Source: Roseobacter insulae
Lineage (GTDB): Bacteria > Pseudomonadota > Alphaproteobacteria > Rhodobacterales > Rhodobacteraceae
Length of the DNA stretch: 64,000 nt
Direction: 5' to 3'
NCBI RefSeq assembly: GCF_019375555.1
Contig: NZ_JAHXDN010000002.1
Span: 992,001 to 1,056,000 of the forward strand
Part shown: positions 40,737 through 57,892 of the stretch, one piece after another
Layout of the letters: every line of letters starts with the position of its first letter
Position numbering within the stretch: the stretch's first letter is position 1
Program-made: the position numbers and the translations under genes
Notes under the pieces: generated by a model
Databases searched by the model: none
What the model saw: only the letters and a program-made list of their open reading frames with translations
Told to the model about the DNA's origin: nothing

Positions 40737-41303
40737 TCAGAAACTGGGCGGTGTGCAGGCGCTGATGATCTCGCATTCTTCGTCACCGATATTGCGAAAC
40801 CTGTGCGGCAGTCGGCTGTTGAACAGGTAGCCATCGCCCGGTCCCAACGTGCTGACTTCGTCATCGACCGTGATCTCGATCCGGCCCCGGATAACGACAC
40901 CGGCCTCTTCGGCTTCATGGATCAGCAGTTCGGGCCCTGTATCGGCCCCCGGAGCATAGCGTTCGTGCAAAACCTGCAGTGAATGATCCTGCGCATTCCC
41001 CAATTGCCGCAGCGACAAAAGCTGGGCAGGCATGCCCTCCAGTTCGGGCGGGGCGATCTCGGTGAATTCGCTGGCGGTATAGAAGTATTTACTCTGCGTT
41101 GGTTCCTCGATCGTGGCAAAAAATTCTGCCATGGAGATCTGGATCGCATCCAGCAGGCTTTTGAGCGACGCAACCGATGGGCTTGTCTTATTCTGTTCGA
41201 TCAGAGAAATAGTGCCATTGGTCAGGCCAGCGCGGGTGGCAAGTTCCCGCTGGGAAAGTCCGCGTTTTTTGCGAATTGCACGCAGTCTGTGTCCGATGTC
41301 CAA
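40737..41303 (-). CDS. XRE-family regulator with C-terminal cupin domain (PuuR-like)
   Basis: About 188 residues from a TTG at 41303 with GAGGAA eight bases upstream; a GTG at 41378 would add 25 residues. The N-terminal helix-turn-helix is LRAIRKKRGLSQRELATRAGLTNGTISLIEQNKTSPS; the cupin follows (GVVIRGRIEITVDD, GDGYLFNSRLPHRF). This architecture is that of PuuR, the putrescine-utilisation repressor, and it is divergent from a GabT-type gene, so control of polyamine/GABA breakdown is likely. Confidence 0.87.
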   Translation of the reverse strand: MDIGHRLRAIRKKRGLSQRELATRAGLTNGTISLIEQNKTSPSVASLKSLLDAIQISMAEFFATIEEPTQSKYFYTASEFTEIAPPELEGMPAQLLSLRQLGNAQDHSLQVLHERYAPGADTGPELLIHEAEEAGVVIRGRIEITVDDEVSTLGPGDGYLFNSRLPHRFRNIGDEECEIISACTPPSF

Positions 41304-41433
41304 GGGGTCGTTTCCTCGTCGTTCGTGTGACGTATTGGTTTTACTCGGGTTTTTAGACAGCACGCAGACAGAAGTCACAATCTTTTTCTGATGACCCGAG
41401 CGAGACGTTACTCTGGTAGGTGCAGAATCACGA

Positions 41434-41461: not shown

Positions 41462-41501
41462 GATTTTAAACACCTTGTCCCTGAATCGAAGGATTCCCTC
41501 C

Positions 41502-42908
41502 ATGGCCACCCCTGCGACAGAAAAAGCATCCAAACCCGCGGCAAAAAAACCGCGCAAGCCGCGCGCGACGAAGCCGCGGAAGATCGCCGTCGTATCGACG
41601 ACACCAGAAGAGCAGTCTAACGCGGCCCTGCTGGCGCGCCGGGAAGCTGCCGTTGCCCGTGGCGTCGCCTCTGCCGCGCCTGTTTTTGCCGACCACGCCG
41701 AAAATGCCGAACTCTGGGACGTCGAAGGCAAACGCTACATCGATTTCGCGGGCGGTATCGCGGTCTTGAATACCGGCCATCGTCACCCGGCGGTCATTGC
41801 CGCCGCCAAGGCACAGGAGGACAAGTTTACACATACGTCTTTCCAGGTGGTCCCTTACGAGTCTTACGTGGCGCTGGCCGAAAAGCTGAACAGCCTTGCC
41901 CCGGGCGATCACGCCAAGAAATCCCTGCTTGTGACCACCGGTGCGGAAGCCGTGGAAAACGCTGTCAAGATTGCGCGCGCGGCCACGGGGCGGCCCGGGG
42001 TTATCGCCTTCACCGGGGGCTATCATGGCCGTACCTTGCTGACGCTGGGCATGACCGGCAAGATCAGCCCCTACAAGAAAGACGTCGGTCCCTTCCCGTC
42101 AGATATCTTCCGCGCACCATTTCCGAGCGTGCGTGACGGCATCTCCGTCGAAGACGCCTTGACCGGCCTGCAAAATCTTTTCCTGACCGATGCGCAACCC
42201 GACCGCATCGCCGCCATCATCATCGAGCCTGTGCTCGGCGAAGGTGGCTACACGCCGGTGCCCTTCGAGATGATGCGCGCGCTGCGCGAGATCTGCGATC
42301 AACATGGCATCCTGCTGATTTCCGATGAAATTCAGGCGGGGTTCGGCCGCACCGGCACGTGGTTCGCCATTGAACATTCCGGCGTTGTGCCAGACCTGAT
42401 CACCGTCGCAAAATCCATGGCCGGCGGCTATCCGATCGCGGGTGTGATTGGGCGTGCCGATGTCATGGACGCGATGGCACCGGGCGGTCTGGGCGGCACT
42501 TACGGGGGGAACCCGGTTGCTTGCGCGGCGGCGCTTGCGGCAATTGAAGCCATTGAAAGCGAAGGACTTCTTGCACGGTCGCTGGCGCTGGGTGCGCATT
42601 TCCGGACTCGCTTCGCCGAAATCGGGGCGCGCGTCGCCCCCTACAGAATGTGGGACATCCGCGGCCTTGGTGCGATGCTGGCAGTGGAATTCGTGACGGA
42701 TTTTGACACCGCAACCCCGGATGCCGCGCTGGTGAAATCCATTTGCGCGCATGCGCTGAAGCGCGGATTGATCCTCTTGGGCTGTGGCATGCATGGCAAC
42801 GCCTTGCGCATCATGGTGCCGCTGACGGCGTCTGATGAGATCATCAACGAAGGTCTTGCCATCTTCGAGGCGGCACTTGCCGATGCGCTGGCCGACCCAG
42901 CCACCTGA
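41502..42908 (+). CDS. gabT: 4-aminobutyrate (or related omega-amino acid) aminotransferase, GabT-like
   Basis: Class-III PLP aminotransferase, 468 residues from the ATG at 41502 (AAGGA eight bases upstream). Schiff-base lysine is K304 (ITVAKSMAGG); TTGAEAVENAVKIARA and DEIQAGFGRTG match GabT. Unusual is a Lys/Arg/Pro/Ala-rich N-terminal tail of about 30 residues (KPAAKKPRKPRATKPRK) before the normal start of the family. 5-aminovalerate is an alternative substrate. Regulation by the divergent PuuR-like gene is likely. Confidence 0.92.
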   Translation: MATPATEKASKPAAKKPRKPRATKPRKIAVVSTTPEEQSNAALLARREAAVARGVASAAPVFADHAENAELWDVEGKRYIDFAGGIAVLNTGHRHPAVIAAAKAQEDKFTHTSFQVVPYESYVALAEKLNSLAPGDHAKKSLLVTTGAEAVENAVKIARAATGRPGVIAFTGGYHGRTLLTLGMTGKISPYKKDVGPFPSDIFRAPFPSVRDGISVEDALTGLQNLFLTDAQPDRIAAIIIEPVLGEGGYTPVPFEMMRALREICDQHGILLISDEIQAGFGRTGTWFAIEHSGVVPDLITVAKSMAGGYPIAGVIGRADVMDAMAPGGLGGTYGGNPVACAAALAAIEAIESEGLLARSLALGAHFRTRFAEIGARVAPYRMWDIRGLGAMLAVEFVTDFDTATPDAALVKSICAHALKRGLILLGCGMHGNALRIMVPLTASDEIINEGLAIFEAALADALADPAT

Positions 42909-45157: not shown

Positions 45158-46216
45158 ATGACCCCATTCGCAATTGCCGGCGTGCAAATGCATGTAAATG
45201 CGTTGCAATCCAACGTCGAAGGGATGATTCACCGACTTGACGTGCTGATGGCGCGCTTCCCGTGGACGCAGATGGTGCTGTTCTCTGAACTGGCACCCTA
45301 TGGCCCGCTTGACCGTTTTGCACAGGCACCGCAGAACGAAGCGCTGGATGTCTTTTGCAAGGCGGCGCGCAAGCATCGTGTCTGGCTTATCCCTGGGTCG
45401 ATGTTTCTGCGCGATCCCGACACCGGGATGGTTTTCAACACCTCCGTTGTGATCAATCCCGAAGGGGAGATCATCCGGCGTTACGCCAAGATGTTCCCGT
45501 TCCGGCCCTATGAAACAGGCATCGCGGCGGGCACCGAATTCTGTGTGTTCGATGTGCCGGACGTGGGTCGTTTTGGTTTGTCGATCTGCTACGACATCTG
45601 GTTCCCCGAAACCACGCGGCAACTCACGGCACAGGGTGTCGAAGTCCTGTTGCACCCGGTCCTGACCGGCACGACGGACCGCGACGCCGAGCTCGCGATT
45701 GCCCGCGCAACGGCGGCGCAGTTCCAATGCTACGTGTTTGACGTCAATGGTCTGGGGGCAGGCGGTGTCGGCAAGTCTTTGGTTGTGGATCCGTCCGCCC
45801 ACGTGCTGCACCAATCTGCCGGGCAGGAGGACATGTTCCCGATCGAGGTGGATCTGTCCACTGTGCGGCGCCAGCGCGAAACCGGCATGAAGGGCCTTGG
45901 CCAGGTGCTCAAGAGCTTCCGTGACCGTTCGGTCGATTTTTCAGTTTATGACCGGAACAGTGGAACCGACGACTACCTCAAAACGTTGGGTCCTCTGGAA
46001 ATACCTCAACAAGGGACACGCGCCGGACTTCACGTGGATGTGCCAGCAGAAAAAGTTCAGGGAGAGCCCGCTTTCAAGGGCATGGCGTTCGACACGCTGA
46101 CCGGTGGCACGTCCCTGCAACCGGCAATGAACACGCAGCTGGCACCGACAACCGAACCAACCCCTCAACCCCTCAAAGTCGAAACGCAGGGGAGCGAAAA
46201 ACAATCCAGCGGGTAA
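45158..46216 (+). CDS. Carbon-nitrogen hydrolase (nitrilase superfamily)
   Basis: 352-residue amidase-type enzyme with the complete triad E44 (FSELAPYG), K111 (RRYAKMFPF) and C144 (SICYDIWFP). The C-terminal 70 residues, Pro/Thr/Gln-rich, extend beyond the usual fold. N-carbamoylputrescine amidohydrolase belongs to this superfamily, which fits the decarboxylase encoded next, but the specificity cannot be read. First gene of the rightward cluster. Confidence 0.9.
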   Translation: MTPFAIAGVQMHVNALQSNVEGMIHRLDVLMARFPWTQMVLFSELAPYGPLDRFAQAPQNEALDVFCKAARKHRVWLIPGSMFLRDPDTGMVFNTSVVINPEGEIIRRYAKMFPFRPYETGIAAGTEFCVFDVPDVGRFGLSICYDIWFPETTRQLTAQGVEVLLHPVLTGTTDRDAELAIARATAAQFQCYVFDVNGLGAGGVGKSLVVDPSAHVLHQSAGQEDMFPIEVDLSTVRRQRETGMKGLGQVLKSFRDRSVDFSVYDRNSGTDDYLKTLGPLEIPQQGTRAGLHVDVPAEKVQGEPAFKGMAFDTLTGGTSLQPAMNTQLAPTTEPTPQPLKVETQGSEKQSSG

Positions 46217-46292
46217 GTCACTGGTTCTGATGGAGCGGTGATTTCCGTTCGCAGGCATTCATGTGGTTTTCTCGCGCAGCGGAGAACGACTA

Positions 46293-49043
46293 ATGCATGC
46301 GATGAACGATTACTCCTCGGCAATACAATTGCGCTCCGACCGGTGGAGTGCGCTGCGCGAAGCGACCAGCGCGCTGACGCGAGACCCAAAACCCAAGCAG
46401 GCGGCGGCGCTCCAGGCAAAAACAGAGGCTCTGTTTAAATCACTGGCGGTAATTGAGCCCTACTGGGCGTTTCCGGGCATGTCGGCTTTTGATCACATGC
46501 GGCGTCAGTTCGAACACAACTCCTTCGATGATCTTGCCTTTGCCGTGGGCCGTGTCACCCGTGCGCTGACAACCGGGGCCTACAGGCGGCGGCACATTCC
46601 GCTGGAACGCGACAGTGTCGATCAGGAAGAGCACGACGACGAAGCGATGTTGCCGCCGGAAGCACGGGCACTGGCCAAACCGTATTTCGAAGTCCTGATC
46701 GTTGATAATGTGAACGAGCATCAGGAACGGTGGCTGCGCAACAATGTGACCCGCATGCGCCGCCCGGAAGATCCGTTTGTTTACGAAGCTGTTGTCGTGC
46801 CCAGCCTCGAGGACGCGCTGGTGGCAGTGCTGTTCAATCACAATATTCAGGCGATTGTCGTGCGCCCCGGCCTCGTTCTGAAGTCCAAGATGGATCAGAG
46901 CATTGTTGCCAGGTATCTCAACCGGGCAGGCGGCCAGGAAGAGATCGACAACATGCTGCCGGAGAACTATGGGCCAGAACTTTGCCGGCTGGTGGCCAAG
47001 GTGCGCCCCGAGCTGGACGCCTACCTGGTTACCGAGCGGTCAGTGGAGGAAATAGCTGGGCTGGATCTGGGTATCTGCCGGCGCGTCTTCTACAATCAGG
47101 AAGATTTCATGGAACTGCATCTCAACATCCTGCGGGGTGTTCAGGCGCGCAACAAAACGCCGTTTTTCACGGCACTGGTGGAGTATTCCAAGCAGCCGAC
47201 GGGTGTCTTTCACGCGATGCCCATCAGTCGTGGTAAATCGATTACGCGGAGCCACTGGATTCAGGACATGGGCGCTTTTTACGGCCCTAATATCTTTCTC
47301 GCCGAAACCTCCGCCACATCCGGCGGGCTGGACAGCCTGCTGGAACCGCACGGCCCGATCAAGGAATCGCAGGAACTGGCGTCACGCGCGTTTGGATCGA
47401 AACAGACGTTTTTTGCCACCAATGGCACCTCGACCTGCAACAAGATCGTGGTGCAGGCACTTGTGCGTCCGGGGGACATCGTGCTGGTCGACCGCGATTG
47501 TCACAAGTCGCACCACTACGGCATGGTACTGGCGGGCGCGCAGGTCTGTTACCTCGACAGCTATCCGCTCAATCAGTATTCGATGTACGGCGCCGTACCT
47601 CTGCGTGAGATCAAGCATCAGTTGCTGAAGCTGAAAGCCGAGGGCAAGCTTGACCGGGTGCGCATGCTGCTTTTGACGAACTGCACCTTCGATGGGCTGG
47701 TCTATAACGTCGAACGGGTTATGGAGGAATGTCTGGCGATCAAGCCGGACCTCATATTCCTGTGGGACGAAGCATGGTTCGCTTTCGCCCGTTTCAACCC
47801 GACCTATCGCCAGCGCACGGCCATGTCCGCCGCCAACAATATGCGCCAAAAGCTCCGCACGGACACGCACCAGCGCATGTATGAGGCGCAGAAAACCATG
47901 CTGGAGGAATGTGACGACGAAAAGCTTCTGGATACGAGGTTGATACCGCCCCCCAACGCGCGGGTAAGGGCCTACGCGACCCAGTCCACGCATAAGACGC
48001 TGACATCCTTGCGACAGGGGTCGATGATTCATGTCAACGATCAGGATTTCAAAGGCGAGGTCGAGCAGGCCTTTCACGAAGCCTATATGACGCACACCTC
48101 CACCTCACCGAATTACCAGATCATCGCCAGCCTGGATGTCGGGCGCCGTCAGGTTGAGCTGGAAGGGTTCGAATTCGTGCAGCGCCAGATCGAGGCGGCC
48201 ATGTCGATGCGTCGCGCGATCATGACGCATCCCCTGTTGTCCAAGTATTTCAAGGTGCTGACGGCGGGTGATATGATCCCGGATCATCACCGCCAGTCGG
48301 GTGTGACCAGCTATTATGACGCGGAACAGGGCTGGACCGATATGTGGGACTGCTGGGAGCAGGATGATTTCGTGCTGGATGCGACCCGGGTGACGCTCGC
48401 GGTGGGCGGTACGGGCTGGGACGGCGACACTTTCAAGACCGACATCCTGATGGATAAATACGGGATCCAGATCAACAAGACATCACGCAACACCGTTCTG
48501 TTCATGACCAACATCGGCACGACGCGATCCTCTGTCGCCTACCTGATCGAGGTGCTGGTCGAAATCGCCAAATCGCTCGATGAACGGCTTGATGATGCCA
48601 GCCGGATGGAACGTCTGTCTTTTGACCGTCGGGTCAAAGGGTTGATGGAGGAATTGCCGCCGCTGCCTGATTTCAGCCGGTTCCACGATGCCTTCCGCCA
48701 GTGCGAAGTGACCGGAGAGGGCGACATCCGTTCTGCCTTCTTCCTCGCCTACAATGAAGAAAAATGCGACTACCTTGATATCAACGGCTCCCTCGGCGAC
48801 GCGCTGAAGGCAGGCGAAGAGGTGGTGTCTGCCAGCTTTATCATTCCCTATCCGCCCGGGTTTCCGATCCTCGTCCCCGGGCAGGTGGTCAGCGAGGAAA
48901 TCCTTGCTTTCATGCTGGCCTTGGATGTCAGCGAAATTCACGGCTACCGGCCCGATCTGGGGCTGAGGGTCTTCACGCAAGAAGCGCTGCAAGCGCTCGT
49001 CGATGCCAAACCCGGCACAAAGCTCGCCCCCGCGGCTGAATAA
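46293..49043 (+). CDS. Large Orn/Lys/Arg-type PLP decarboxylase
   Basis: 916 residues from the ATG at 46293 (GGAGAA about seven bases upstream), larger than the roughly 710-760 residues of enterobacterial inducible decarboxylases. After a long N-terminal part comes a wing-like region (FEVLIVDNVNEHQERWLRNN), then the fold-type-I core: TNGTSTCNKIVVQALVRPGD, DRDCHKSHHYG, FLWDEAWFAF and Schiff-base lysine K568 in STHKTLTSLRQGS. The C-terminal domain is family-typical (SFIIPYPPGFPILVPGQ). It should make a di- or polyamine from a basic amino acid; which one is unknown. Confidence 0.88.
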   Translation: MHAMNDYSSAIQLRSDRWSALREATSALTRDPKPKQAAALQAKTEALFKSLAVIEPYWAFPGMSAFDHMRRQFEHNSFDDLAFAVGRVTRALTTGAYRRRHIPLERDSVDQEEHDDEAMLPPEARALAKPYFEVLIVDNVNEHQERWLRNNVTRMRRPEDPFVYEAVVVPSLEDALVAVLFNHNIQAIVVRPGLVLKSKMDQSIVARYLNRAGGQEEIDNMLPENYGPELCRLVAKVRPELDAYLVTERSVEEIAGLDLGICRRVFYNQEDFMELHLNILRGVQARNKTPFFTALVEYSKQPTGVFHAMPISRGKSITRSHWIQDMGAFYGPNIFLAETSATSGGLDSLLEPHGPIKESQELASRAFGSKQTFFATNGTSTCNKIVVQALVRPGDIVLVDRDCHKSHHYGMVLAGAQVCYLDSYPLNQYSMYGAVPLREIKHQLLKLKAEGKLDRVRMLLLTNCTFDGLVYNVERVMEECLAIKPDLIFLWDEAWFAFARFNPTYRQRTAMSAANNMRQKLRTDTHQRMYEAQKTMLEECDDEKLLDTRLIPPPNARVRAYATQSTHKTLTSLRQGSMIHVNDQDFKGEVEQAFHEAYMTHTSTSPNYQIIASLDVGRRQVELEGFEFVQRQIEAAMSMRRAIMTHPLLSKYFKVLTAGDMIPDHHRQSGVTSYYDAEQGWTDMWDCWEQDDFVLDATRVTLAVGGTGWDGDTFKTDILMDKYGIQINKTSRNTVLFMTNIGTTRSSVAYLIEVLVEIAKSLDERLDDASRMERLSFDRRVKGLMEELPPLPDFSRFHDAFRQCEVTGEGDIRSAFFLAYNEEKCDYLDINGSLGDALKAGEEVVSASFIIPYPPGFPILVPGQVVSEEILAFMLALDVSEIHGYRPDLGLRVFTQEALQALVDAKPGTKLAPAAE

Positions 49044-49066
49044 ACCCAACAGAGAGGACATAATAC

Positions 49067-50527
49067 ATGCCCGCAACGGTTCTGAAGAACATCTCGGAAA
49101 TCCGCCGGTATTTTCACCGAAACGAGGACCCGGTCTATTTCATCTCGGCCACGAATTTCAACCTGCTGGGGTTGGACGAATGGGTGAAGAACTTCAAATA
49201 CATCTGCTACATCGACTGTTATGGCGGCAAGCACCCGAACGTGTTCTGCCCCTCCGAGCAACCGCATGCAGAGTTTCAATCCATCGAGGACATCAACAAC
49301 TACCTGTTGCAGCACAAAGAGGTCATCGACTTCATCAAGCGGCGCGGCGGCAAGCCAAAGTTTGTCTTTCTGATGTTTGACGAGGAAACGGAACGGCTGT
49401 CCAAGGAGCTGGGCGCGGATGTCTGGTTCCCCAAGGCCAAGCTGCGCACCTCGATGGACAACAAGATTGAAACCGTGCGGATCGGCAACAAGGCGGGCGT
49501 GCCATCGGTGCCGAACGTGCTGGCCGAGGTGACGTCTTACGAAGATCTGAAGAAGACATGCGAGAAGGCCGGGATCGGGCATGACCTCGTTTTGCAATCG
49601 GCCTTTGGGGATTCCGGTCATACCACGTTCTTCATTAAGTCCGAGGCCGATTTCCGCCGCCACGAGCACGAGATCATCGGCGAAGGCGAGATCAAGATCA
49701 TGAAGCGCATCGATTGCCGGGGCTCGGCGATCGAAGCCTGTGCGACGAAAGAGGGCACCATCGTGGGCCCGCTGATGACGGAACTGGTCGGGTTCAAGGA
49801 ACTGACACCCTATCGCGGCGGCTGGTGTGGCAATGAAATCCTGTCAACCGCCTTCCCGCCGAAGGTGCGGCAACAGGCGCGCGATCTGACCTTCAAGTTC
49901 GGCGAGCAACTGCGCAAGGAAGGCTACCGTGGGTATTTCGAGCTCGACTTCCTGATCGACAAGAAAACCGGCGATCTGTGGTTGGGCGAGTTGAACCCGC
50001 GCATCACCGGCGCGTCGTCGATGACCAACCACGCGGCCTTTGCCCATGCGGATGCGCCGCTCTTCCTGTTCCACCTGCTGGAGTTTTCGAAGAAGAAGTT
50101 CAATCTGGATGTAGACGAGTTGAACGCCCGCTGGGCCGACAGCGCCAATATCGACAGCTGGTCGCAGATGGTGATCAAGCACACCGAAGACAGTGTCGAT
50201 ATCTGTACGGATAGCCCGGAAACCGGCATCTACCGGATGCTGGAGGACGGCCGCGTTGTTTATGACCGCTTCGATTATCACCGCCGGGCGGTCGAATCCG
50301 AGAACGAGGCGTTTTTCCTGCGCATCCTGCAGCCGGGCGATTATCGCTATGAAGGTGCGGATATCGGCATCCTGGTGACGCGGGGCCGTTCGATGACCAA
50401 GAGTTTCCAGTTGAATGAGCGCGCGAAAAAGTGGATTCACGGCATCAAGCAATCCGTGGCCGCCAAACCGCTGCCAACGGCCACGGCTGGTCCGGAACTG
50501 GCGGATCCGGCGTTCAAAATCCTCTGA
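49067..50527 (+). CDS. ATP-grasp ligase-like protein
   Basis: 486 residues. The central ATP-grasp fold has a glycine-rich flexible loop (QSAFGDSGHTTF, about 178-189) and Mg/ATP ligands E292/D294 and E308, N310 (GELNPRITG). It resembles the biotin-carboxylase/carbamoyl-phosphate-synthetase branch but has no biotin-carboxyl-carrier or other fused domain. Such stand-alone enzymes activate a carboxylate as acyl phosphate and join it to an amine or thiol. It is 23 bases after the decarboxylase gene, so the amine produced there may be the acceptor (inference). Confidence 0.85.
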   Translation: MPATVLKNISEIRRYFHRNEDPVYFISATNFNLLGLDEWVKNFKYICYIDCYGGKHPNVFCPSEQPHAEFQSIEDINNYLLQHKEVIDFIKRRGGKPKFVFLMFDEETERLSKELGADVWFPKAKLRTSMDNKIETVRIGNKAGVPSVPNVLAEVTSYEDLKKTCEKAGIGHDLVLQSAFGDSGHTTFFIKSEADFRRHEHEIIGEGEIKIMKRIDCRGSAIEACATKEGTIVGPLMTELVGFKELTPYRGGWCGNEILSTAFPPKVRQQARDLTFKFGEQLRKEGYRGYFELDFLIDKKTGDLWLGELNPRITGASSMTNHAAFAHADAPLFLFHLLEFSKKKFNLDVDELNARWADSANIDSWSQMVIKHTEDSVDICTDSPETGIYRMLEDGRVVYDRFDYHRRAVESENEAFFLRILQPGDYRYEGADIGILVTRGRSMTKSFQLNERAKKWIHGIKQSVAAKPLPTATAGPELADPAFKIL

Positions 50528-50548
50528 CCCGAAAGGATCGCGCATCCA

Positions 50549-51520
50549 ATGTTATGGCGCGCCGTAAGTGAAGAAACGCCCGGACCGAAATGGTCCGGGC
50601 TTTTCGCCGAATACTGGCCGGACTACAAACGCTGGTGGTTGAAGGAGGGCGACAGCGCCCGCCCGACCTATGCGGAATCCTACCGGGCGCTGAAAGAACA
50701 TATGCCCGAAATCCTGCCGCTCTACGAGGAATTATGCGCCTTGGCGGGCGGTGGCGATCACGCCGCGCGGTTCTTGTCGTTCTATTGCCCGCCGCCGTAT
50801 CTGGCCGGCTGTTCGCAGGCGATATGGACCGGCAAGGAACCGGTCATGGTGCGCAATTATGACTATAACCCGAACGCATTTGACAGTCTCGTGCTGAATA
50901 CAAAATGGCAGGGGCGGCAGGTTATGGGCACATCCGACGGGCTCTGGGGCATGGTTGACGGGGTGAACGATGCTGGTCTTGCAATTTCCCTGACCTTCGG
51001 CGGGCGCAGAATTGTTGGCGACGGCTTCGGTGTGCCGCTGATCCTGCGCTATGTTCTGCAGACCTGTGACACGGCGGAAGAAGCCGGCGAGGTGCTGGCC
51101 CGTGTGCCGACCCACATGAGTTACAATGTGACCGTGCTGGACAAGAAGCGCCATTATCTGACGGCGATGATGGCCCCTGATCGGCCCGCGCTGATCACCC
51201 ATGCCGCGGTGGCGACGAACCATCAGGAAAACGTGGAATGGGTCAGTCACGCGCGCTTCACCGCGACGGTCGAACGCGAGCGGTTTCTGTTGCACCGGCT
51301 CAGACTGCACCGTGACCCGGAAGAGAAATTCATAAGCGCTTTCCTGAAGCCACCTCTTTATTCAACCGCTTTTACCGCCGGGTTTGGCACGCTCTACACG
51401 GCTGTTTACCGGCCCAGACGTCGCCAGATGGAGCTGCGCTGGCCCGGTACGGTCTGGCCCTTGTCGATGAAAGCCTTCGAAGAAGGCCGACGTCAGATTC
51501 TGCTGCCGGGTGCTGCCTGA
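50549..51520 (+). CDS. C45-family (penicillin acyltransferase-like) N-terminal-nucleophile enzyme
   Basis: 323 residues with the autoprocessing site G87-C88 (LAGCSQAIW), after which Cys88 would be the N-terminal nucleophile, and conserved VMVRNYDYNP and GLWGMVDGVNDAGLAISL blocks of acyl-CoA:6-aminopenicillanate acyltransferase relatives. The family hydrolyses or exchanges amide bonds. It is 21 bases after the ATP-grasp gene. No signal peptide, so it acts in the cytoplasm. Confidence 0.88.
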   Translation: MLWRAVSEETPGPKWSGLFAEYWPDYKRWWLKEGDSARPTYAESYRALKEHMPEILPLYEELCALAGGGDHAARFLSFYCPPPYLAGCSQAIWTGKEPVMVRNYDYNPNAFDSLVLNTKWQGRQVMGTSDGLWGMVDGVNDAGLAISLTFGGRRIVGDGFGVPLILRYVLQTCDTAEEAGEVLARVPTHMSYNVTVLDKKRHYLTAMMAPDRPALITHAAVATNHQENVEWVSHARFTATVERERFLLHRLRLHRDPEEKFISAFLKPPLYSTAFTAGFGTLYTAVYRPRRRQMELRWPGTVWPLSMKAFEEGRRQILLPGAA

Positions 51521-51645
51521 GGTTCGCGCGAATGACTATTTTTCTCAACAAAATCAATTTCATTCTCGTTTAAATAGCAGAAGGGGCTTGCCAAATTGTG
51601 CAGCGTCCCAAAGATTGTCGTCAGAAAAAAATAGGGGAGACTACC

Positions 51646-53226
51646 ATGAAAAAGACAACAACTTTGCTGTCGGCTGCGGTGCTGCTGTCAACGACATGCC
51701 TTGCCAGCGCTGAAACGCTGCGGTGGGCCCGTGCGGGCGACAGCCTGACACTGGACCCGCATGCGCAGAACGAAGGGCCGACAACGACGCTGAACCATCA
51801 GATCATGGAACCGCTGGTGCATCGCGATCATGCCGGCACCATCGTGCCCGCACTGGCAACCGAATGGGCGCCATCCGAAGCGGACCCGAATGTCTGGACC
51901 TTCATCCTGCGCGAAGGGGTGACATTCCACGACGGCTCCGCCTTTGACAGCTCGGACGTGAAATTCAGCCTCGAACGCGCGATGACGGAAGACTCCGATT
52001 TCAAGGAACTGCTGGCCTCCGTGTCGGAAATCCGCGCGCCCGATGCCTACACGATCGAAATCGTGACCAATGGTCCAAATCCGATCATGCCCAACAACCT
52101 GACCAACATGTTCATCATGGACAAGGAATGGGCCGAGGCGAACAACGCCGTGAAGGTGCAGGACTACGAGGGTGGCGAAGACACTTTCGCTGCTAAAAAC
52201 GCAAACGGCACGGGCCCTTACAAGCTGATCAGCCGCGAACCTGACGTGAAAACCGTACTGGCGGCCAATGAAAACTACTGGGGTATCGGTGAATTCCCCC
52301 TCGAAGTGACCGAGATCATCTACACGCCTATCCAGAACGCCGCGACCCGTGTGGCGGCCTTGCTCTCGGGCGAAGTTGACTTCATCCAGGACGTGCCGGT
52401 GCAGGACCTTGATCGCGTGGCGGGCACCGATGGCCTTGATGTACGCACGGCCCCGCAAAACCGGGTGATCTTCTTCGGCATGAACGTGGGCGATGAAGAC
52501 CTCGCCAATGACAGCGTTGAAGGCGCCAACCCGCTGGCGGATGTTCGGGTACGCGAAGCGATGAACCTTGCCATCAACCGCGACGCCATCAAGCAGGTGG
52601 TGATGCGGGGCCAGTCGGCACCTGCCGGGATGATCGCGCCGCCCTTCGTGAACGGCTGGGACCAGACGATGGATGCGTCCTCTACCACGGATCTCGACAA
52701 GGCCAAGACACTAATGGCTGACGCAGGGTACGGCGATGGCTTCTCGATCCAGCTTGATTGCCCGAACGATCGCTACATCAACGATGAGGCGATCTGTCAG
52801 GCGGCTGTCGGCATGCTGGCGCAGATCGGGGTCAACGTGAACCTTGATGCCAAGCCCAAGGCGCAACACTTCCCGCTGCTCAGCAACCTGGAGACGGATT
52901 TCTACATGCTGGGCTGGGGCGTGCCGACCTACGATTCCGAATATATCTTCAACTTCCTCGTACACGGTCGTGACGACAAATACGGGTCGTGGAATGCGAC
53001 GCGCTTCACCAATGATGATCTGAACGACAAGATTCAGAGCCTCGCGTCGAACACCGATCTGGAAGCGCGCGATGCCGATATAGCCGCGATCTGGCAGGTG
53101 GTGCAGGATGAGAAGATCTATATCCCCATTCACCACCAGGTGCTGAACTGGGGCATGAAATCCGGGGTCGACACGGTTGTCGAAGCAGAAGATTCGCCCA
53201 AAATCAAGTACTTCAAGCTGAACTGA
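51646..53226 (+). CDS. Peptide-type ABC solute-binding protein, first of a tandem pair
   Basis: 526 residues with a signal peptide (MKKTTTLLSAAVLLSTTCLASA). Family-5 features are LTLDPHAQNEGPTTTLNHQ, LREGVTFHDGSAFDSSDVKFSLERA and CPNDRYINDEAICQ. The ATG at 51646 follows AGGGGAGA. The 125-base gap before it is AT-rich and could carry a promoter. It is a clear paralogue of the next gene. Confidence 0.94.
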   Translation: MKKTTTLLSAAVLLSTTCLASAETLRWARAGDSLTLDPHAQNEGPTTTLNHQIMEPLVHRDHAGTIVPALATEWAPSEADPNVWTFILREGVTFHDGSAFDSSDVKFSLERAMTEDSDFKELLASVSEIRAPDAYTIEIVTNGPNPIMPNNLTNMFIMDKEWAEANNAVKVQDYEGGEDTFAAKNANGTGPYKLISREPDVKTVLAANENYWGIGEFPLEVTEIIYTPIQNAATRVAALLSGEVDFIQDVPVQDLDRVAGTDGLDVRTAPQNRVIFFGMNVGDEDLANDSVEGANPLADVRVREAMNLAINRDAIKQVVMRGQSAPAGMIAPPFVNGWDQTMDASSTTDLDKAKTLMADAGYGDGFSIQLDCPNDRYINDEAICQAAVGMLAQIGVNVNLDAKPKAQHFPLLSNLETDFYMLGWGVPTYDSEYIFNFLVHGRDDKYGSWNATRFTNDDLNDKIQSLASNTDLEARDADIAAIWQVVQDEKIYIPIHHQVLNWGMKSGVDTVVEAEDSPKIKYFKLN

Positions 53227-53253
53227 GCCTGAGACGCTTGTGACATAAAACGG

Positions 53254-53276
53254 CGTGGCCCGATCACCGGGCCGCG
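53254..53276 (+). promoter_or_regulatory. Stem-loop between the two binding-protein genes
   Basis: CGTGGCCCG-ATCAC-CGGGCCGCG: a 9-bp stem with one wobble pair, 28 bases after the first binding-protein stop, without U-tract. Such structures often stabilise an abundant binding-protein message relative to downstream permease genes. Confidence 0.55.
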
Positions 53277-53319
53277 TCGCCACCGCTTTCCCGCATCTCC
53301 TGCTGAAAGGGTTCCTCTT

Positions 53320-54885
53320 ATGCTTCGTCCCATTTCACTCGCCGCCGCCCTGATGGTTTCCGCCTCCGCTCTTGTGGCCGAGGAGTTTCGATGGGCGGAG
53401 ACGACCGACCCGCAAACGATGGACCCGCATGCGGTGAATTCCGCCGCCGTCCTGGGGTTTCTCAATAACGTTTACGAAGGGCTGGTGCGCCGCGGCAAGG
53501 ACATGACTATCGAGCCGGCGTTGGCCACCGCGTGGGAACCCATCGGGGCCGGGGAAGGCTGGCGCTTCACCCTCCGGCAGGGCGTAACCTTCCACGATGG
53601 CAGTACGTTTGACGCGCAGGATGTGCTCTTTTCGTATCAGCGCGCCTCTGATGAAGCCTCCGATACCCGCAGCTGGTTCGCACCGGTCTCCGACGTCAAA
53701 GTGGTCGATGACTACACGGTCGACATCATGACCACGGCGCCGAACCCGATTTTCCCCGACAGCATTGCCAACTGGATGATGATGGATTCAGGCTGGGCCG
53801 AAGCGAATAACGCGGCGCGCCCGGACAAGGACAACGGCAACTTCGCCACTTTGAATGCCAATGGCACCGGTGCTTTCCAATTGACGACGCGAGAGCCGGG
53901 ATTGCGCACGGTGCTGGAGCCCTTCGGTGGCTGGTGGGATGAGGCAGAGCACAACATCACCCGGGCCGAGCTGACCCCGATCCAGAACCCGGCCACGGCG
54001 GTCGCCGCACTGCTGTCGGGCGATGTCGATTTCATCAACCCTGTGCCCATTCAGGACACCGCCCGGCTGGCCGCGAATGATCAGGTGAAGGTCATTCAGG
54101 GCATCGAAGCGCGGGTGATCATGCTGGGCTTTCCACATGAGGCCGAGGCACTGAAATACTCCGCCGAAACCACTGACAGGAATCCCTTTGCCGATGTGCG
54201 GGTCCGGCAGGCGGTTGCCCATGCGATCAATGTGCCCGCCATTTTGCAGACCATCATGCGCGGCAACGCGGAAGAGGTCAGCCAATTGGTCAGCCCGGCA
54301 ATGCGCGGGTTCAGCGCGTCGCTCGCCGCGCGGCCTGCCTTTGACCCCGACAAGGCGCGCGCCCTGCTGGCGGAGGCCGGTTACCCCGAGGGGTTTTCCT
54401 TTGGCCTGAAATGCCCCAATGACCGCTACCTGAACGACGAATCCGTCTGCCAGGCGATCACCGGCATGCTGGCTCAGGTCGGGGTCAGGGCAACGCTGGA
54501 CGCCATGCCGGTGCAGAATTACTGGCCCGAGCTGCGCGCGGACAACTATGATATGTATCTGCTTGGCTGGTCGCCAGGCACATTCGATGCGGAACACCCG
54601 ATCCGTTTTCTGGCCAGCACACCCAACGAGGAAAGGAAGCTTGGGTCGTGGAATTTCGGCGGGTTTTCCAACGCCCGCGTGGATGAGTTGCTGCCAATGG
54701 TCCAATCCGAGATCGACGATGCCAAGCGACAGGCCATGCTTGATGAAAGTGCGAAAATCCTGCAGGACGAAATGGCATATGTACCGCTTTATGTGCAACC
54801 ATTGGTCTGGGGGGCGCAGGCAAATATCGACCTGACCCAGCGCCCGGATAACTTCTTTCTGCTGCGGTGGGTGACGATCAATTGA
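53320..54885 (+). CDS. Peptide-type ABC solute-binding protein, second of a tandem pair
   Basis: 521 residues with a signal peptide (MLRPISLAAALMVSASALVA). It shares long segments with the preceding protein (TMDPHAVNSAAV, LRQGVTFHDGSTFDAQDVLF, KCPNDRYLNDESVCQ), so the pair arose by duplication. Both presumably feed the one permease set that follows. Confidence 0.94.
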   Translation: MLRPISLAAALMVSASALVAEEFRWAETTDPQTMDPHAVNSAAVLGFLNNVYEGLVRRGKDMTIEPALATAWEPIGAGEGWRFTLRQGVTFHDGSTFDAQDVLFSYQRASDEASDTRSWFAPVSDVKVVDDYTVDIMTTAPNPIFPDSIANWMMMDSGWAEANNAARPDKDNGNFATLNANGTGAFQLTTREPGLRTVLEPFGGWWDEAEHNITRAELTPIQNPATAVAALLSGDVDFINPVPIQDTARLAANDQVKVIQGIEARVIMLGFPHEAEALKYSAETTDRNPFADVRVRQAVAHAINVPAILQTIMRGNAEEVSQLVSPAMRGFSASLAARPAFDPDKARALLAEAGYPEGFSFGLKCPNDRYLNDESVCQAITGMLAQVGVRATLDAMPVQNYWPELRADNYDMYLLGWSPGTFDAEHPIRFLASTPNEERKLGSWNFGGFSNARVDELLPMVQSEIDDAKRQAMLDESAKILQDEMAYVPLYVQPLVWGAQANIDLTQRPDNFFLLRWVTIN

Positions 54886-54981
54886 TCCCGTGCCGCACAG
54901 GAACACAGCTTTCCGGCGGCGAGGTTACTTGACCCGCTGTCGATCCCTTGCAACATGGCCTGATCCACAGGAAGGAATACA

Positions 54982-55962
54982 ATGCTCGCCTACGTGATCC
55001 AGCGCGTTTTTCAATCGGCGATTGTCTTGCTGGTTGTGGGTCTTGTCGCCTTCTCCATGTTCCGGTTCGTGGGGGACCCGGTCGACAACATGCTCGGTCA
55101 GGAGCGCACCCAAGCGGATATCGAAAGGCTGCGCACCCAGCTAGGACTCGATCAGCCGTTTCCGGTGCAGTACTTCAAGTTTCTGACAGGCGCAGCGCAG
55201 GGCAACTTTGGCGTCAGCTACCGGCAGGGGCGCCCTGTCTCCGACATCCTCGTGGAACGAGCGCCTGCAACGCTGGAATTGGCCGCCGTTTCGGGGTTCT
55301 TGGCGATCAGCATCGGCATTGCCCTTGGCGTCTTTACCGCGATCAGGCGCAACGGCTTTGCCGCGCATGCGATTATGTCTGTCTCTCTTATCGGTGTGTC
55401 CCTGCCGACCTTCCTGATCGGGATCCTGTTGATCTATTTGTTTTCGGTGGAGCTGGGGTGGCTGCCCAGTTTCGGACGTGGCGACACGGTGAAGATAGGC
55501 GGGTGGTCTACTGGCTTTCTGACGGAATCGGGTCTCAAGGCGCTGATCCTGCCATCCATCACCCTTGGCCTGTACCAGATGACGTTGATCATGCGGCTGG
55601 TGAGATCGGAAATGCTGGAAGTTCTCCGGCAAGACTATATCCGATTTGCACGCGCCCGGGGTCTGCGCGAACGCGCGGTGAACTTCCGGCATGCGCTGAA
55701 AAACACGCTGGTCCCGGTCATCACGGTCACCGGGTTGCAGTTGGGCTCCATCATCGCGTTTGCCATCATCACCGAAACCGTTTTTCAATGGCCCGGCGTT
55801 GGATTGCTTTTCATCAACGCCATCCAATTCGTCGATATCCCGGTTATGGCCGCCTACCTGATGCTGATTTCGGTGATGTTTGTTGGCATCAACCTGATCG
55901 TTGATCTGCTTTACTTTGCAATCGATCCGCGTCTGCGCGTCGATAGAACGGCGGCACACTAA
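54982..55962 (+). CDS. Peptide-type ABC transporter permease (DppB-like)
   Basis: 326-residue inner-membrane protein starting MLAYVIQRVFQSAIVLLVVG, with the coupling loop (YIRFARARGLRERAVNFRHALKNTLVPVIT). AGGAAGGA lies upstream of the ATG. Its stop overlaps the next start (TAATG). Confidence 0.94.
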   Translation: MLAYVIQRVFQSAIVLLVVGLVAFSMFRFVGDPVDNMLGQERTQADIERLRTQLGLDQPFPVQYFKFLTGAAQGNFGVSYRQGRPVSDILVERAPATLELAAVSGFLAISIGIALGVFTAIRRNGFAAHAIMSVSLIGVSLPTFLIGILLIYLFSVELGWLPSFGRGDTVKIGGWSTGFLTESGLKALILPSITLGLYQMTLIMRLVRSEMLEVLRQDYIRFARARGLRERAVNFRHALKNTLVPVITVTGLQLGSIIAFAIITETVFQWPGVGLLFINAIQFVDIPVMAAYLMLISVMFVGINLIVDLLYFAIDPRLRVDRTAAH

Positions 55963-56912
55963 TGGCTGAAACCTCTTTGAATACTCCCACCTCGGAACGG
56001 TCACGCCTGCGCGTGTCACTTGACAGTGATTTCGCCTATCAGTTCCGCAAATCGCCCGTTGCCATCGTCTCCGCGGTCACTGTGCTGATCATGGTCCTTT
56101 GCGCCGTATTTGCCCCTCTGATCGCGCCCTATAATCCGTTTGATCCAGCATCTCTGAACCTGATGAACGGGTTTTCCAAGCCAATGGAGCCGAACGCCTT
56201 TACCGGTGATACCTTCTGGCTGGGCACAGACGATCAAGGGCGCGACGTCTTTTCCACCATTCTTTACGGCATGCGCATTTCTCTGTTTGTCGGCGCAGCG
56301 GCAGTGCTTTTTGCGATGGTTCTTGGCATTTCGCTGGGGTTGATCGCCGGGTATGTGGGCGGTTGGGTCGAGACGATCATCATGCGTGTCGCCGATGTTC
56401 AACTGACCTTTCCGGCGATCCTCGTCGCGATGCTGATCTTCGGCGTTGCCAAGGGGATAACCCCTGTCGAATACCGAGACCAGATGGCGATCTGGGTGCT
56501 GATCATTGCCATTGGCCTCAGTGACTGGGTTCAGTTCGCGCGTGTCGTCCGCGGCGCGACGCTGGTAGAAAAGAACAAGGAATACGTGCAGGCCGCCCGC
56601 CTTATCGGGCGCGGGCCGGGGGCAATCATGATCAAGCATATCCTGCCAAACGTGCTGTCGCCGGTCCTGGTGATTGCAACGATCTCTCTGGCTCTCGCCA
56701 TCATCGCGGAGGCCACGCTCAGCTTTCTCGGCGTTGGAGCGCCACCCACGCAGCCATCGCTTGGTACCCTGATCCGCATCGGGCAAGGGTTCCTCTTCTC
56801 GGGCGAGTGGTGGATTTTACTGTTTCCAGCGGTGACCCTTTTGGCGCTGGCGCTCTCTGTCAATCTGCTGGGTGACTGGCTGCGCGATGCGCTAAATCCA
56901 AGGCTGCGGTAA
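55962..56912 (+). CDS. Peptide-type ABC transporter permease (DppC-like)
   Basis: 316 residues. It has the cytoplasmic N-terminus typical of DppC, GTDDQGRDVFSTILYGMRISL, and the coupling loop (EYVQAARLIGRGPGAIMIKHILPN). It shares one base with each neighbouring gene (TAATG at both ends). Confidence 0.94.
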   Translation: MAETSLNTPTSERSRLRVSLDSDFAYQFRKSPVAIVSAVTVLIMVLCAVFAPLIAPYNPFDPASLNLMNGFSKPMEPNAFTGDTFWLGTDDQGRDVFSTILYGMRISLFVGAAAVLFAMVLGISLGLIAGYVGGWVETIIMRVADVQLTFPAILVAMLIFGVAKGITPVEYRDQMAIWVLIIAIGLSDWVQFARVVRGATLVEKNKEYVQAARLIGRGPGAIMIKHILPNVLSPVLVIATISLALAIIAEATLSFLGVGAPPTQPSLGTLIRIGQGFLFSGEWWILLFPAVTLLALALSVNLLGDWLRDALNPRLR

Positions 56913-57892
56913 TGAACGAACCAATTCTGTCGATCCGCGATCTGACGGTCGAGATCCCCACCCGTCACGGTATTCTGTCGCCTGTCAAAGGTGTCAGCTA
57001 TGATATCGGGCGCGGTGAAATACTGGGGGTTGTTGGCGAATCCGGGGCGGGCAAATCGATGGCGGGCAATGCGGTGATCGGATTGCTCAGCCCTCCGGCC
57101 CATATCGCGGAGGGCGAAATCTGGGTGGGCGGAACACGGGTCGATCATCTTGCGGGCGAACAGATGCGCCGCCTGCGGGGCAAGGAAATCGGCATGGTGT
57201 TTCAGGACCCGCTCACGTCGCTGAACCCACTGCTGCGGATCGGTGATCAGTTGACTGAAACAATGCTGGCACATCTCGATATTTCACGCAGCGAGGCCGA
57301 GGCCCGCGCCGTTGCCGCGCTGGAGGAAGTTGGCATCCCCGGTGCTGCGGAACGTGTCGGCAGCTACCCGCATGAGTTTTCCGGCGGCATGCGGCAACGT
57401 GTTGTCATTGCCCTTGCCCTATGTGCCGAGCCCTCTCTGATCATCGCGGATGAACCGACCACGGCGCTGGATGTATCCGTACAGGCCCAGATCATTTCCC
57501 TGCTCAAGAAGCTCTGCCGCGAGCGGGGCACGGCGGTCATGCTGATCACTCACGACATGGGCGTGATTGCCGAAGCCGCGGACCGCGTTGCGGTGATGTA
57601 TGCAGGCCAGCTGGCGGAACTGGGCTCGGTGCGCGAGGTGCTGACACGGCCGCGCCATCCCTACACGGACGGGTTGATGGGTTCGACCCCTTTGGCATCC
57701 CGCGGCAAGGACCGTCTGCATCAGATCCCCGGTGCCATGCCCCGGCTCGACGCTCTGCCGCCCGGATGTGCATTTCATCCCCGGTGCCCCCACGCGCAGG
57801 ACCGATGTGCGGAAAATCCGGGTCCGCGCATTGAAGACGGGGCAGGCGGTGTTGCCTGCTGGTTCCCCATGACACGGGAGGCCGTGGCCTGA
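56912..57892 (+). CDS. Peptide-type ABC transporter ATPase (DppD-like)
   Basis: 326 residues: Walker A GESGAGKS, signature FSGGMRQRV, Walker B LIIADEPTTALD, and the C-terminal oligopeptide-transporter domain with a cysteine motif (GCAFHPRCPHAQDRC) seen in DppD/OppD. One-base overlap with the next gene (TGATG). Confidence 0.95.
   Translation: MNEPILSIRDLTVEIPTRHGILSPVKGVSYDIGRGEILGVVGESGAGKSMAGNAVIGLLSPPAHIAEGEIWVGGTRVDHLAGEQMRRLRGKEIGMVFQDPLTSLNPLLRIGDQLTETMLAHLDISRSEAEARAVAALEEVGIPGAAERVGSYPHEFSGGMRQRVVIALALCAEPSLIIADEPTTALDVSVQAQIISLLKKLCRERGTAVMLITHDMGVIAEAADRVAVMYAGQLAELGSVREVLTRPRHPYTDGLMGSTPLASRGKDRLHQIPGAMPRLDALPPGCAFHPRCPHAQDRCAENPGPRIEDGAGGVACWFPMTREAVA

What the first reader, a model, noticed from the sequence alone, without database searches (positions are those of the whole stretch)
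45158..51520. Nitrilase - large decarboxylase - ATP-grasp ligase - C45 acyltransferase cassette: candidate undescribed amide pathway
Four enzymes lie head to tail. A PLP decarboxylase (916 residues, K568 intact) can make an amine, an ATP-grasp enzyme (E308, N310) can couple a carboxylate to it, a C45 N-terminal-nucleophile enzyme (C88) can transfer or hydrolyse the acyl group, and a C-N hydrolase (E44, K111, C144) can release ammonia or deacylate. Gaps between the last three are 21-23 bases. I know no named pathway with this combination. It could build a small amide from a basic amino acid, or scavenge one with the transporter that follows.
Basis: partly seen in the sequence, partly recalled or inferred. 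Interest (0 to 1): 0.8.

Follow-up and report, generated by a model that had tools for sequence, protein, structure and literature searches.

The report
Conserved four-enzyme amide pathway, substrate unknown
Four enzymes that look able to make, decarboxylate and cut small amides are kept side by side in many marine, soil and probably salt-loving bacteria, often inside gene clusters for using ectoine, arginine or glutamate, yet I found no paper describing what they do together.

Summary
The four genes are real, intact and where stated. They form a conserved module: 77 of 80 related loci keep nitrilase-decarboxylase-ATP-grasp-C45 in that order; the other 3 run off contig ends. In 249 sampled genomes the four families occur in nearly the same genomes. 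In an unnamed, Halomonas-like family, 27 of 28 carriers have the module between doeX and doeC of the ectoine-degradation operon. On three plasmids a D-arginine-to-guanidinobutyrate route replaces the decarboxylase locally. Half of the alphaproteobacterial loci (48 of 93) carry a TAXI-TRAP importer resembling a proven glutamate binder.

'Basic amino acid' is doubtful: the Glu proposed to contact lysine in lysine decarboxylase is Asn in 109 of 109 rows, with an Arg gained nearby. The window's ABC transporter is in only 7 of 93 loci, though other dipeptide-type ABC genes adjoin some rhizobial copies.

Best mechanism, inferred: the ligase caps an amine, the decarboxylase acts on the capped or acidic amino acid, and C45 removes the cap, giving GABA-type products. 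The substrate is unproven.

The parts
45158..46216 (+). NIT: carbon-nitrogen hydrolase (nitrilase superfamily), 352 aa, E44/K111/C144; amidase of unknown substrate
   Evidence: PF00795 98.7 bits; triad invariant in 99 of 99 rows; present in 78 of 80 loci, missing in 2 that are cut by the contig end
46293..49043 (+). DEC: PLP decarboxylase of the Rv2531c class, 916 aa from ATG 46293 (ORF opens at GTG 46263); PLP Lys568 (578 in the long form)
   Evidence: PF01276 256.5 bits; Rv2531c 9n0n 828 bits, best arginine decarboxylase 206 bits; N738/Q874 109 of 109 rows with a residue, R742 104 of 105 cassette rows
49067..50527 (+). GRASP: ATP-grasp ligase, 486 aa, NCBI family PRK06524 (named 'biotin carboxylase'); the most conserved member, 89-96% identity across 80 loci
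   Evidence: NF005096 760 bits > 684; CPSase_L_D2 weak in 20 of 20; E308/N310/R312 111 of 111 rows; identities
50549..51520 (+). C45: N-terminal-nucleophile hydrolase/acyltransferase, 323 aa, probable self-cleavage at G87-C88
   Evidence: PF03417, NF040521; C88 106 of 106 rows; model pLDDT 81.4, best fold match isopenicillin N acyltransferase 2x1c E 2.8e-12
41475..42908 (+). associated, not core: 4-aminobutyrate transaminase (GabT)
   Evidence: TIGR00700 547.6 > 506.7; a class III aminotransferase lies upstream in 31 of 93 loci
40737..41378 (-). associated, not core: PuuR-like HTH-cupin regulator
   Evidence: NF007408 137.6 bits, below its cut-off 211; in 19 of 93 loci
51598..58854 (+). window-lineage transporter: dipeptide-type ABC genes (two SBPs, two permeases, two ATPases by similarity and reading)
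   Evidence: PF00496 for the first SBP (the others were not scanned); SBP cluster in 7 of 93 loci; distant ABC relatives beside rhizobial copies

Best explanation
A conserved protect-decarboxylate-deprotect amide module. SHOWN: the four genes travel together, with intact catalytic residues, next to genes whose families handle glutamate/GABA, arginine or ectoine. INFERRED: GRASP uses ATP to join a carboxylate, most likely the gamma-carboxyl of glutamate, to the side-chain amine of a diamino acid (ornithine, or the diaminobutyrate released from ectoine). DEC then removes the alpha-carboxyl of this blocked, no longer cationic amino acid, giving an N-acyl amine. The free amine is oxidised to an acid by the class III aminotransferase and aldehyde dehydrogenase that lie next to the module in many genomes. 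C45 cuts the amide, releasing an omega-amino acid (GABA or beta-alanine) for GABA transaminase, and the carrier for reuse. In the plasmid variant racemase, D-amino-acid dehydrogenase, keto-acid decarboxylase and aldehyde dehydrogenase replace DEC plus aminotransferase: on paper both routes turn an alpha-amino acid into the acid one carbon shorter. NIT hydrolyses an amide at a step I cannot place. This would be a non-homologous counterpart of the E. coli Puu pathway (recalled).
For: Ligase and C45 stay together where DEC or NIT is missing nearby (L097, L098, L113, L114, L116, L119, L120, L150, L151), as expected of a make-and-break pair. DEC lacks both acids of basic-amino-acid decarboxylases and has an Arg in the substrate loop; E526 is a proposed lysine contact from docking (PMC5607190 passages). 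Plasmid variant, scanned in L113: AruI 737 > 500 bits, D-amino acid dehydrogenase 473.5 > 383, agmatinase family 212 > 174, ornithine-racemase-like 393 (below its cut-off 480). Ectoine operon: 27 of 28 carriers, doeA 654 > 613 and doeB 491 > 403 bits in L094; the pathway passes through diaminobutyrate (recalled). A class III aminotransferase directly downstream of C45 in 26 of 93 loci; the one scanned, L008, is PRK07483, 764.8 > 485. Glutamate-type TAXI importer in 48 of 93 loci, binding residues Y45, S75, Q93, E125 kept in 48 of 48. C45 fold matches an enzyme that removes an aminoadipyl amide group (reaction recalled).
Against: No substrate was tested. The ligase acyl donor and acceptor are guesses; its structure model failed (pLDDT 40.8). 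The TAXI importer and the AspT-type neighbours of stand-alone DEC genes fit plain glutamate or aspartate as DEC substrate equally well. R742 is absent in Rv2531c (Ile), so it does not define the family. The ligase-C45 link has exceptions: L144 has a diverged ligase without C45, L117 and L118 a broken C45, and genome G167 has C45 without the ligase. In the same sample 4 of 12 DEC genomes and 2 of 8 NIT genomes lack the ligase. No oxidase or aldehyde dehydrogenase is in the core; 39 of 93 loci show neither transporter type, contig-cut loci included. Ectoine operons already hold doeC/doeD to process diaminobutyrate, and 83 of 111 genomes of that family lack the ligase. In the arginine variant the guanidino group could itself be the block, leaving the ligase unexplained; whether those organisms have DEC elsewhere was not tested. 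NIT has no assigned step. The 2-ketoarginine, glutamate and similar labels are family names, not tests.
Confidence: 0.3

Rival explanations
1. Glutamate-to-GABA route with a GABA amide: DEC is a glutamate (or aspartate) decarboxylase making GABA (or beta-alanine); in the plasmid variant GABA comes from arginine instead. The ligase joins GABA to an amine and C45 hydrolyses or transfers it; NIT trims an amide.
For: TAXI importer with conserved glutamate-binding residues; charge change in the DEC loop; stand-alone DEC beside AspT-type antiporters; class III aminotransferase, GabT included, near 51 of 93 loci; both supply routes would end at GABA.
Against: A ligase and a hydrolase acting on the same GABA amide would be a futile cycle unless the amide is exported or stored; I noticed no exporter among the recurring neighbours; does not explain the ectoine operon well.
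Confidence: 0.27
2. One reading: DEC makes an amine from a basic amino acid and the ligase couples a carboxylate to that amine, or the cassette scavenges an imported amide.
For: Fold family of Orn/Lys/Arg decarboxylases; agmatinase-family gene upstream in L139 and L141; arginine genes in the plasmid variant; dipeptide-type ABC genes beside the window copy, L116, L118-L120 and L151.
Against: E526 equivalent is Asn and the PGE Glu is Gln in 109 of 109 rows with a residue; nearest solved relative is not a known basic-amino-acid decarboxylase.
Confidence: 0.13
3. A biosynthetic module for a small amide osmolyte or signal, made under salt stress and recycled by C45.
For: Place in the ectoine operon, universal stress protein-like gene (label recalled) near 21 of 93 loci, many hosts with marine names (names only).
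Against: The neighbours that recur look catabolic (GabT, doeA-D, AruI route) or are importers.
Confidence: 0.2
4. Unrelated neighbours without joint function.
For: C45 and nitrilase relatives also occur outside the cassette (L162-L165).
Against: Conserved together with three different internal orders and in several genomic contexts.
Confidence: 0.02

Closest known systems
Puu (gamma-glutamyl-putrescine) pathway of E. coli (recalled)
   Same: Logic proposed here: ATP-dependent glutamylation of an amine, oxidation, amide hydrolysis, GABA transaminase; a PuuR-like regulator and GabT lie near a share of the loci (19 and, as class III aminotransferase upstream, 31 of 93)
   Different: Ligase is ATP-grasp, not glutamine-synthetase-like; hydrolase is C45, not a class I amidotransferase type; a large PLP decarboxylase replaces the oxidase in the core; substrate unproven
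Rv2531c, M. tuberculosis probable amino acid decarboxylase (PDB 9n0n/9n0o; entry 9N0O tied to Rv2531c)
   Same: DEC aligns over residues 22-916 at 828 bits with the same NKTS and PGQ motifs
   Different: Its activity is unknown (PMC12910592 passages); Ile in place of R742; its gene neighbours were not examined
Extended basic-amino-acid decarboxylases (LdcI, AdiA type)
   Same: PLP STHK motif, overall family
   Different: E526 and the PGE Glu are lost; best score about 4 times lower than for Rv2531c
Isopenicillin N acyltransferase / C45 (NCBIfam NF040521)
   Same: Fold (2x1c, E 2.8e-12), Gly-Cys processing site, catalytic Cys
   Different: 14-16% identity to these structures; no acyl-CoA or penicillin context seen
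Biotin carboxylase / carbamoyl-phosphate synthase ATP-grasp domains
   Same: Weak but consistent similarity
   Different: No biotin carrier or carboxyltransferase noticed beside it; ELNPR loop instead of the EHPVTE loop of biotin carboxylase (motif recalled)
Butirosin BtrJ/BtrK (ATP-grasp glutamylation, then PLP decarboxylation to GABA; recalled)
   Same: Ligase plus PLP decarboxylase turning a gamma-glutamyl unit into a GABA unit
   Different: No acyl carrier protein among the four genes (one lies on the opposite strand near the L113/L114 copies); no sequence comparison was made

Membership tests
Orn/Lys/Arg decarboxylase (basic substrate) | PLP-binding STHK lysine | tested here: met
   108 of 108 rows with a residue, 2 gaps
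Orn/Lys/Arg decarboxylase (basic substrate) | Acidic residue proposed to bind the distal amine (LdcI E526) | tested here: not met
   Asn738 in 109 of 109 rows with a residue
Orn/Lys/Arg decarboxylase (basic substrate) | Activity on Arg, Lys or Orn | not testable with these tools
   needs an enzyme assay
Rv2531c class of decarboxylases | Full-length similarity | tested here: met
   residues 22-916 aligned, 828 bits
Biotin carboxylase | Biotin carrier or carboxyltransferase genes beside it | tested here: not met
   none noticed by eye in the ORFs of the window and of the loci printed; similarity only weak
Biotin carboxylase | Carboxylation of biotin | not testable with these tools
   needs an enzyme assay
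C45 autoproteolytic acyltransferase/hydrolase | Curated model above cut-off | tested here: met
   NF040521 186.7 > 85 bits
C45 autoproteolytic acyltransferase/hydrolase | Gly-Cys processing site and catalytic Cys | tested here: met
   C88 106 of 106; G87 100 of 106, Ala 4, Ser 2
Nitrilase superfamily | Glu-Lys-Cys triad | tested here: met
   99 of 99 rows
N-carbamoylputrescine amidase (AguB) | TIGR03381 cut-off 410 bits | tested here: not met
   55.7 bits
Puu pathway | PuuA-type ligase and PuuB oxidase in the module | tested here: not met
   none among the four genes
Ectoine catabolic operon (for the 27 embedded loci) | doeA and doeB above curated cut-offs | tested here: met
   TIGR02993 653.8 > 613, TIGR02994 491.3 > 402.7 in L094 only; the others called by tblastn to L094
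Glutamate TAXI SBP (VcGluP type) | Tyr45 and Gln93, the critical binding residues | tested here: met
   48 of 48 SBPs (numbering mapped by me); binding itself not tested

The most novel reading that the evidence does not exclude
A new catabolic strategy: an ATP-grasp ligase and an acyltransferase-fold hydrolase place and remove a temporary gamma-glutamyl (or similar) cap, so that a decarboxylase class which has lost the cation-binding acids can process capped diamino acids from ornithine, arginine or ectoine. It would also give a first substrate class for the orphan Rv2531c decarboxylase family.
Probability: 0.3. Interest if true: 0.82.

Novelty: new variant of a known kind. Interest (0 to 1): 0.62.

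Why it matters
Solving it would add an uncharted step to bacterial nitrogen metabolism. It would also put a substrate on a decarboxylase class whose solved member has no known activity, and correct the probably misleading database name 'biotin carboxylase' for the ligase. Genomes with and without the module exist in the same ectoine-degrading family (28 and 83 of 111), so the question is directly testable.

Tried and rejected
Structure of the ligase: model from 43 close homologues failed (pLDDT 40.8), so no fold search was run on it. Profile search of the PDB with 20 diverse ligases found only biotin-carboxylase, biotin-dependent carboxylase and CPS-type ATP-grasp chains at 17.5-35.2 bits, no substrate hint. 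Viral contigs: no relative. C45 and NIT relatives outside the cassette gave no clear neighbourhood clue. AguB (N-carbamoylputrescine amidase) for NIT: far below cut-off. Literal biotin carboxylase: set aside for lack of partner genes. Coincidence: rejected. DEC as plain arginine decarboxylase: considered because of the agmatinase and AruI neighbours, ranked low because of the pocket residues. Paper searches for the cassette or its ligase returned nothing on it; one search listed two papers that look unrelated by title. Papers: PMC12910592, PMC5607190, PMC8503589, PMC11574862 and PMC12344293 were seen as passages only; the Rv2531c structure paper is not held. After doeX in 10 of the 14 doeB-bearing genomes without the ligase I found no doeC in the short stretch held.

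Full report
Observation. The window lies in a 4.88 Mb genome. The ATP-grasp protein has no Pfam match at E <= 0.001 but passes the cut-off of NCBI family NF005096 (760 against 684 bits).

Conservation. By their titles nearly all carry Rhodobacterales names (taxonomy recalled; L045 is titled only Alphaproteobacteria). All four genes lie on one strand in the window's order in 77 of 80; in two of these (L063, L075) C45 is cut by the contig end. The other 3 (L016, L021, L022) lack the first or last gene because the contig ends there. Identity of the best segment to the window: ligase 89-96% (median 93, 80 loci), decarboxylase 78-95% (83, 80), C45 74-92% (82, 79), nitrilase 68-91% (82, 78). These 80 are the closest relatives, so the figures describe one clade.

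Co-occurrence. In samples of 249 genomes of the phylum (by the handles listed the same draw each time) the ligase was found in 8 (E <= 1e-20), the decarboxylase in 12 (E <= 1e-60), C45 in 9 and the nitrilase in 8 (both E <= 1e-40). All 8 ligase genomes have the decarboxylase and C45, and 6 of 8 the nitrilase. Against this, 4 decarboxylase, 1 C45 and 2 nitrilase genomes lack the ligase. Hypergeometric p values are 1.5e-12, 2.8e-14 and 2.5e-9, uncorrected for ancestry. A class sample gave 11 of 385 (two of them only partial matches) and a larger phylum sample 11 of 398 ligase genomes at E <= 1e-40.

Layouts outside the 80. Among 31 further loci inspected (L094-L100, L113-L120, L138-L153), 15 have all four genes. 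Three are cut by contig ends (L138, L142, L145). Seven have DEC-ligase-C45 without NIT in the stretch held (L097, L098, and the rhizobial plasmids L116-L120, where L117 has a C45 fragment followed by transposase genes and L118 a frame-split C45). Four have NIT-ligase-C45 without DEC in the stretch held (L113, L114, L150, L151); whether DEC lies elsewhere in those organisms was not tested. L144 has a diverged ligase (44%) alone beside a PRK07483-type aminotransferase (502.6 against 485 bits). L146 has a truncated ligase with C45. Internal order varies: NIT-DEC-ligase-C45; NIT-ligase-C45-DEC (L094, L095, L148); and divergent NIT-C45 against DEC-ligase (L096). Dipeptide-type ABC genes distantly related to the window's follow C45 in L116 and L118-L120 and precede NIT in L151.

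Ectoine operon. A search of 111 genomes of the family of G086 found the ligase in 28. In 27 of these 28 the module lies on one strand in the order doeB-doeX-[NIT-ligase-C45-DEC]-doeC-doeD, with doeA in 26. doeA and doeB of L094 pass the curated models; the rest were called by similarity to L094. By tblastn ends, which can be shortened by split matches, the doeX-NIT gap is 148-385 bp in 26 of 27 (7.4 kb in L178) and the DEC-doeC gap 191-355 bp in 25 of 27 (1.6 and 2.9 kb in L185 and L181). The one exception, L203, has only a diverged ligase and C45. Of 83 genomes without the ligase I examined 20: 14 have doeB, and in 4 of these doeX is followed directly by doeC, so an empty junction exists. The family is unnamed; 'Halomonas-like' is my guess from gene content. 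A search of 49 genomes of another family (that of G007) found the ligase only in G007 itself.

Plasmid variant. Shinella, Roseateles XES5 and Sinorhizobium RAC02 plasmids carry, without DEC nearby: NIT, an Lrp regulator, amino acid permease, agmatinase-family gene, 5-guanidino-2-oxopentanoate decarboxylase, aldehyde dehydrogenase, ligase, C45, D-amino acid dehydrogenase, a racemase fused to an arginase-like domain, and RidA. Models were run on L113 only; the other two follow by similarity. On paper racemase, dehydrogenase, keto-acid decarboxylase and aldehyde dehydrogenase give the same net change (alpha-amino acid to the acid one carbon shorter) as DEC, aminotransferase and aldehyde dehydrogenase. 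This equivalence is my inference.

Neighbours in alphaproteobacterial loci. I counted neighbours within 6.5 kb over 93 loci: the 80 plus 14 others of the same class, less L145, which the script skipped. The rhizobial plasmids, L144 and the non-alphaproteobacterial loci were left out. Class III aminotransferase in 51, TRAP permease 49, TAXI binding protein 48, universal-stress-protein-like 21, PuuR-like regulator 19, FMN glutamate-synthase-like 17, the window's SBP 7. A class III aminotransferase starts within 170 bp of the end of C45, or overlaps it by start choice, in 26 loci, 24 of them with TAXI; the one scanned (L008) is PRK07483. The TAXI protein of L153 scores 397 bits to 8s4j, an entry named in the paper on the V. 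cholerae glutamate-binding protein VcGluP (PMC11574862 passages). By my mapping its binding residues Y45, S75, Q93, E125 and H123 are conserved in 48 of 48, Y200 in 47 of 48, while M201 and D157 are replaced. VcGluP also binds glutamine and pyroglutamate more weakly. Thirty-nine of the 93 loci show neither transporter.

Decarboxylase. The best solved relative is Rv2531c (828 bits over residues 22-916; best arginine decarboxylase 206, best lysine decarboxylase 181), whose activity is unknown (PMC12910592 passages). In the alignment residue 526 of inducible lysine decarboxylase (my count on the printed numbering of 9e0o), the lysine contact proposed from docking (PMC5607190 passages), falls on Asn738, and the Glu of the C-terminal PGE motif on Gln874. 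Both are invariant in 109 of 109 rows with a residue there, window included. A Pro in that loop becomes R742 in 104 of 105 cassette rows and 4 of 4 stand-alone rows, but is Ile in Rv2531c. A free cationic side chain is therefore unlikely; an acidic, neutral or capped one is likely. Four stand-alone DEC genes (L134-L137) sit just upstream of a 566-aa transporter; the one scanned (L134) matches the AspT family at 372 bits, below the equivalog cut-off of 547, with its duplication domain above cut-off.

Ligase and C45. The ligase resembles CPS/biotin-carboxylase ATP-grasp domains weakly and its model failed. The C45 model is good (81.4) and matches isopenicillin N acyltransferase first, then N-acylethanolamine acid amidase and acid ceramidase. 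C45 relatives known to me cut omega-linked aminoacyl amides (aminoadipyl in penicillin biosynthesis, beta-alanyl in insect Tan; recalled), which is why a gamma-glutamyl or GABA amide is a sensible guess.

Reading. The strongest pattern is that ligase and C45 mostly stay together while the decarboxylation step, the nitrilase and the transporter can change. I commit to temporary capping of an amine (best explanation, 0.3), with direct glutamate-to-GABA amide chemistry close behind (0.27). The evidence does not separate them, and NIT is unplaced in both. What is secure is the conserved module, its place in the ectoine operon of one family, and the poor fit of the decarboxylase to basic amino acids at sequence level.

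Literature. Ten paper searches were made. Those aimed at the cassette or its ligase found nothing on it. The library holds only openly licensed papers, so this is weak evidence of absence.

Noticed in passing
L113:12782-14569 (also L114, L150): Ornithine-racemase-like domain (393 bits, cut-off 480) fused to a diverged arginase-like stretch (44.7 bits, cut-off 227.6) in an arginine operon (L113 only).
   Followed up: no
L113:14984-19446 and L114:15030-19446 (-): Next to the arginine variant, on the opposite strand, lie nadE, an adenylate-forming enzyme, an acyl carrier protein and asnB: possibly a separate amide-forming cluster (annotations).
   Followed up: no
L117 and L118: C45 appears broken on two rhizobial plasmids: a short fragment followed by transposase genes in L117, two frames in L118. 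Described only.
   Followed up: no
L134-L137: Stand-alone Rv2531c-class decarboxylase directly upstream of an AspT-like antiporter in four genomes; L134-L136 share SulP-like and PPK2-like genes nearby (these two labels recalled).
   Followed up: partly
window 42963-44579 (-): Glutamate-synthase-domain protein (PF01645) divergent from the cassette, kept in 17 of 93 loci.
   Followed up: no
window 58836-61219: CaiB-type CoA-transferase and FAD monooxygenase-like gene downstream of the ABC genes; a CaiB relative lies near 9 of 93 loci, often right after C45.
   Followed up: no
G000:C13 (L162): Second C45 gene in the window's own genome (45% identical) beside a PHB-depolymerase-like gene (label by eye), outside any cassette.
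   Followed up: partly
L144: Diverged ligase (44%) without DEC, C45 or NIT in the stretch held but beside a PRK07483 aminotransferase.
   Followed up: partly
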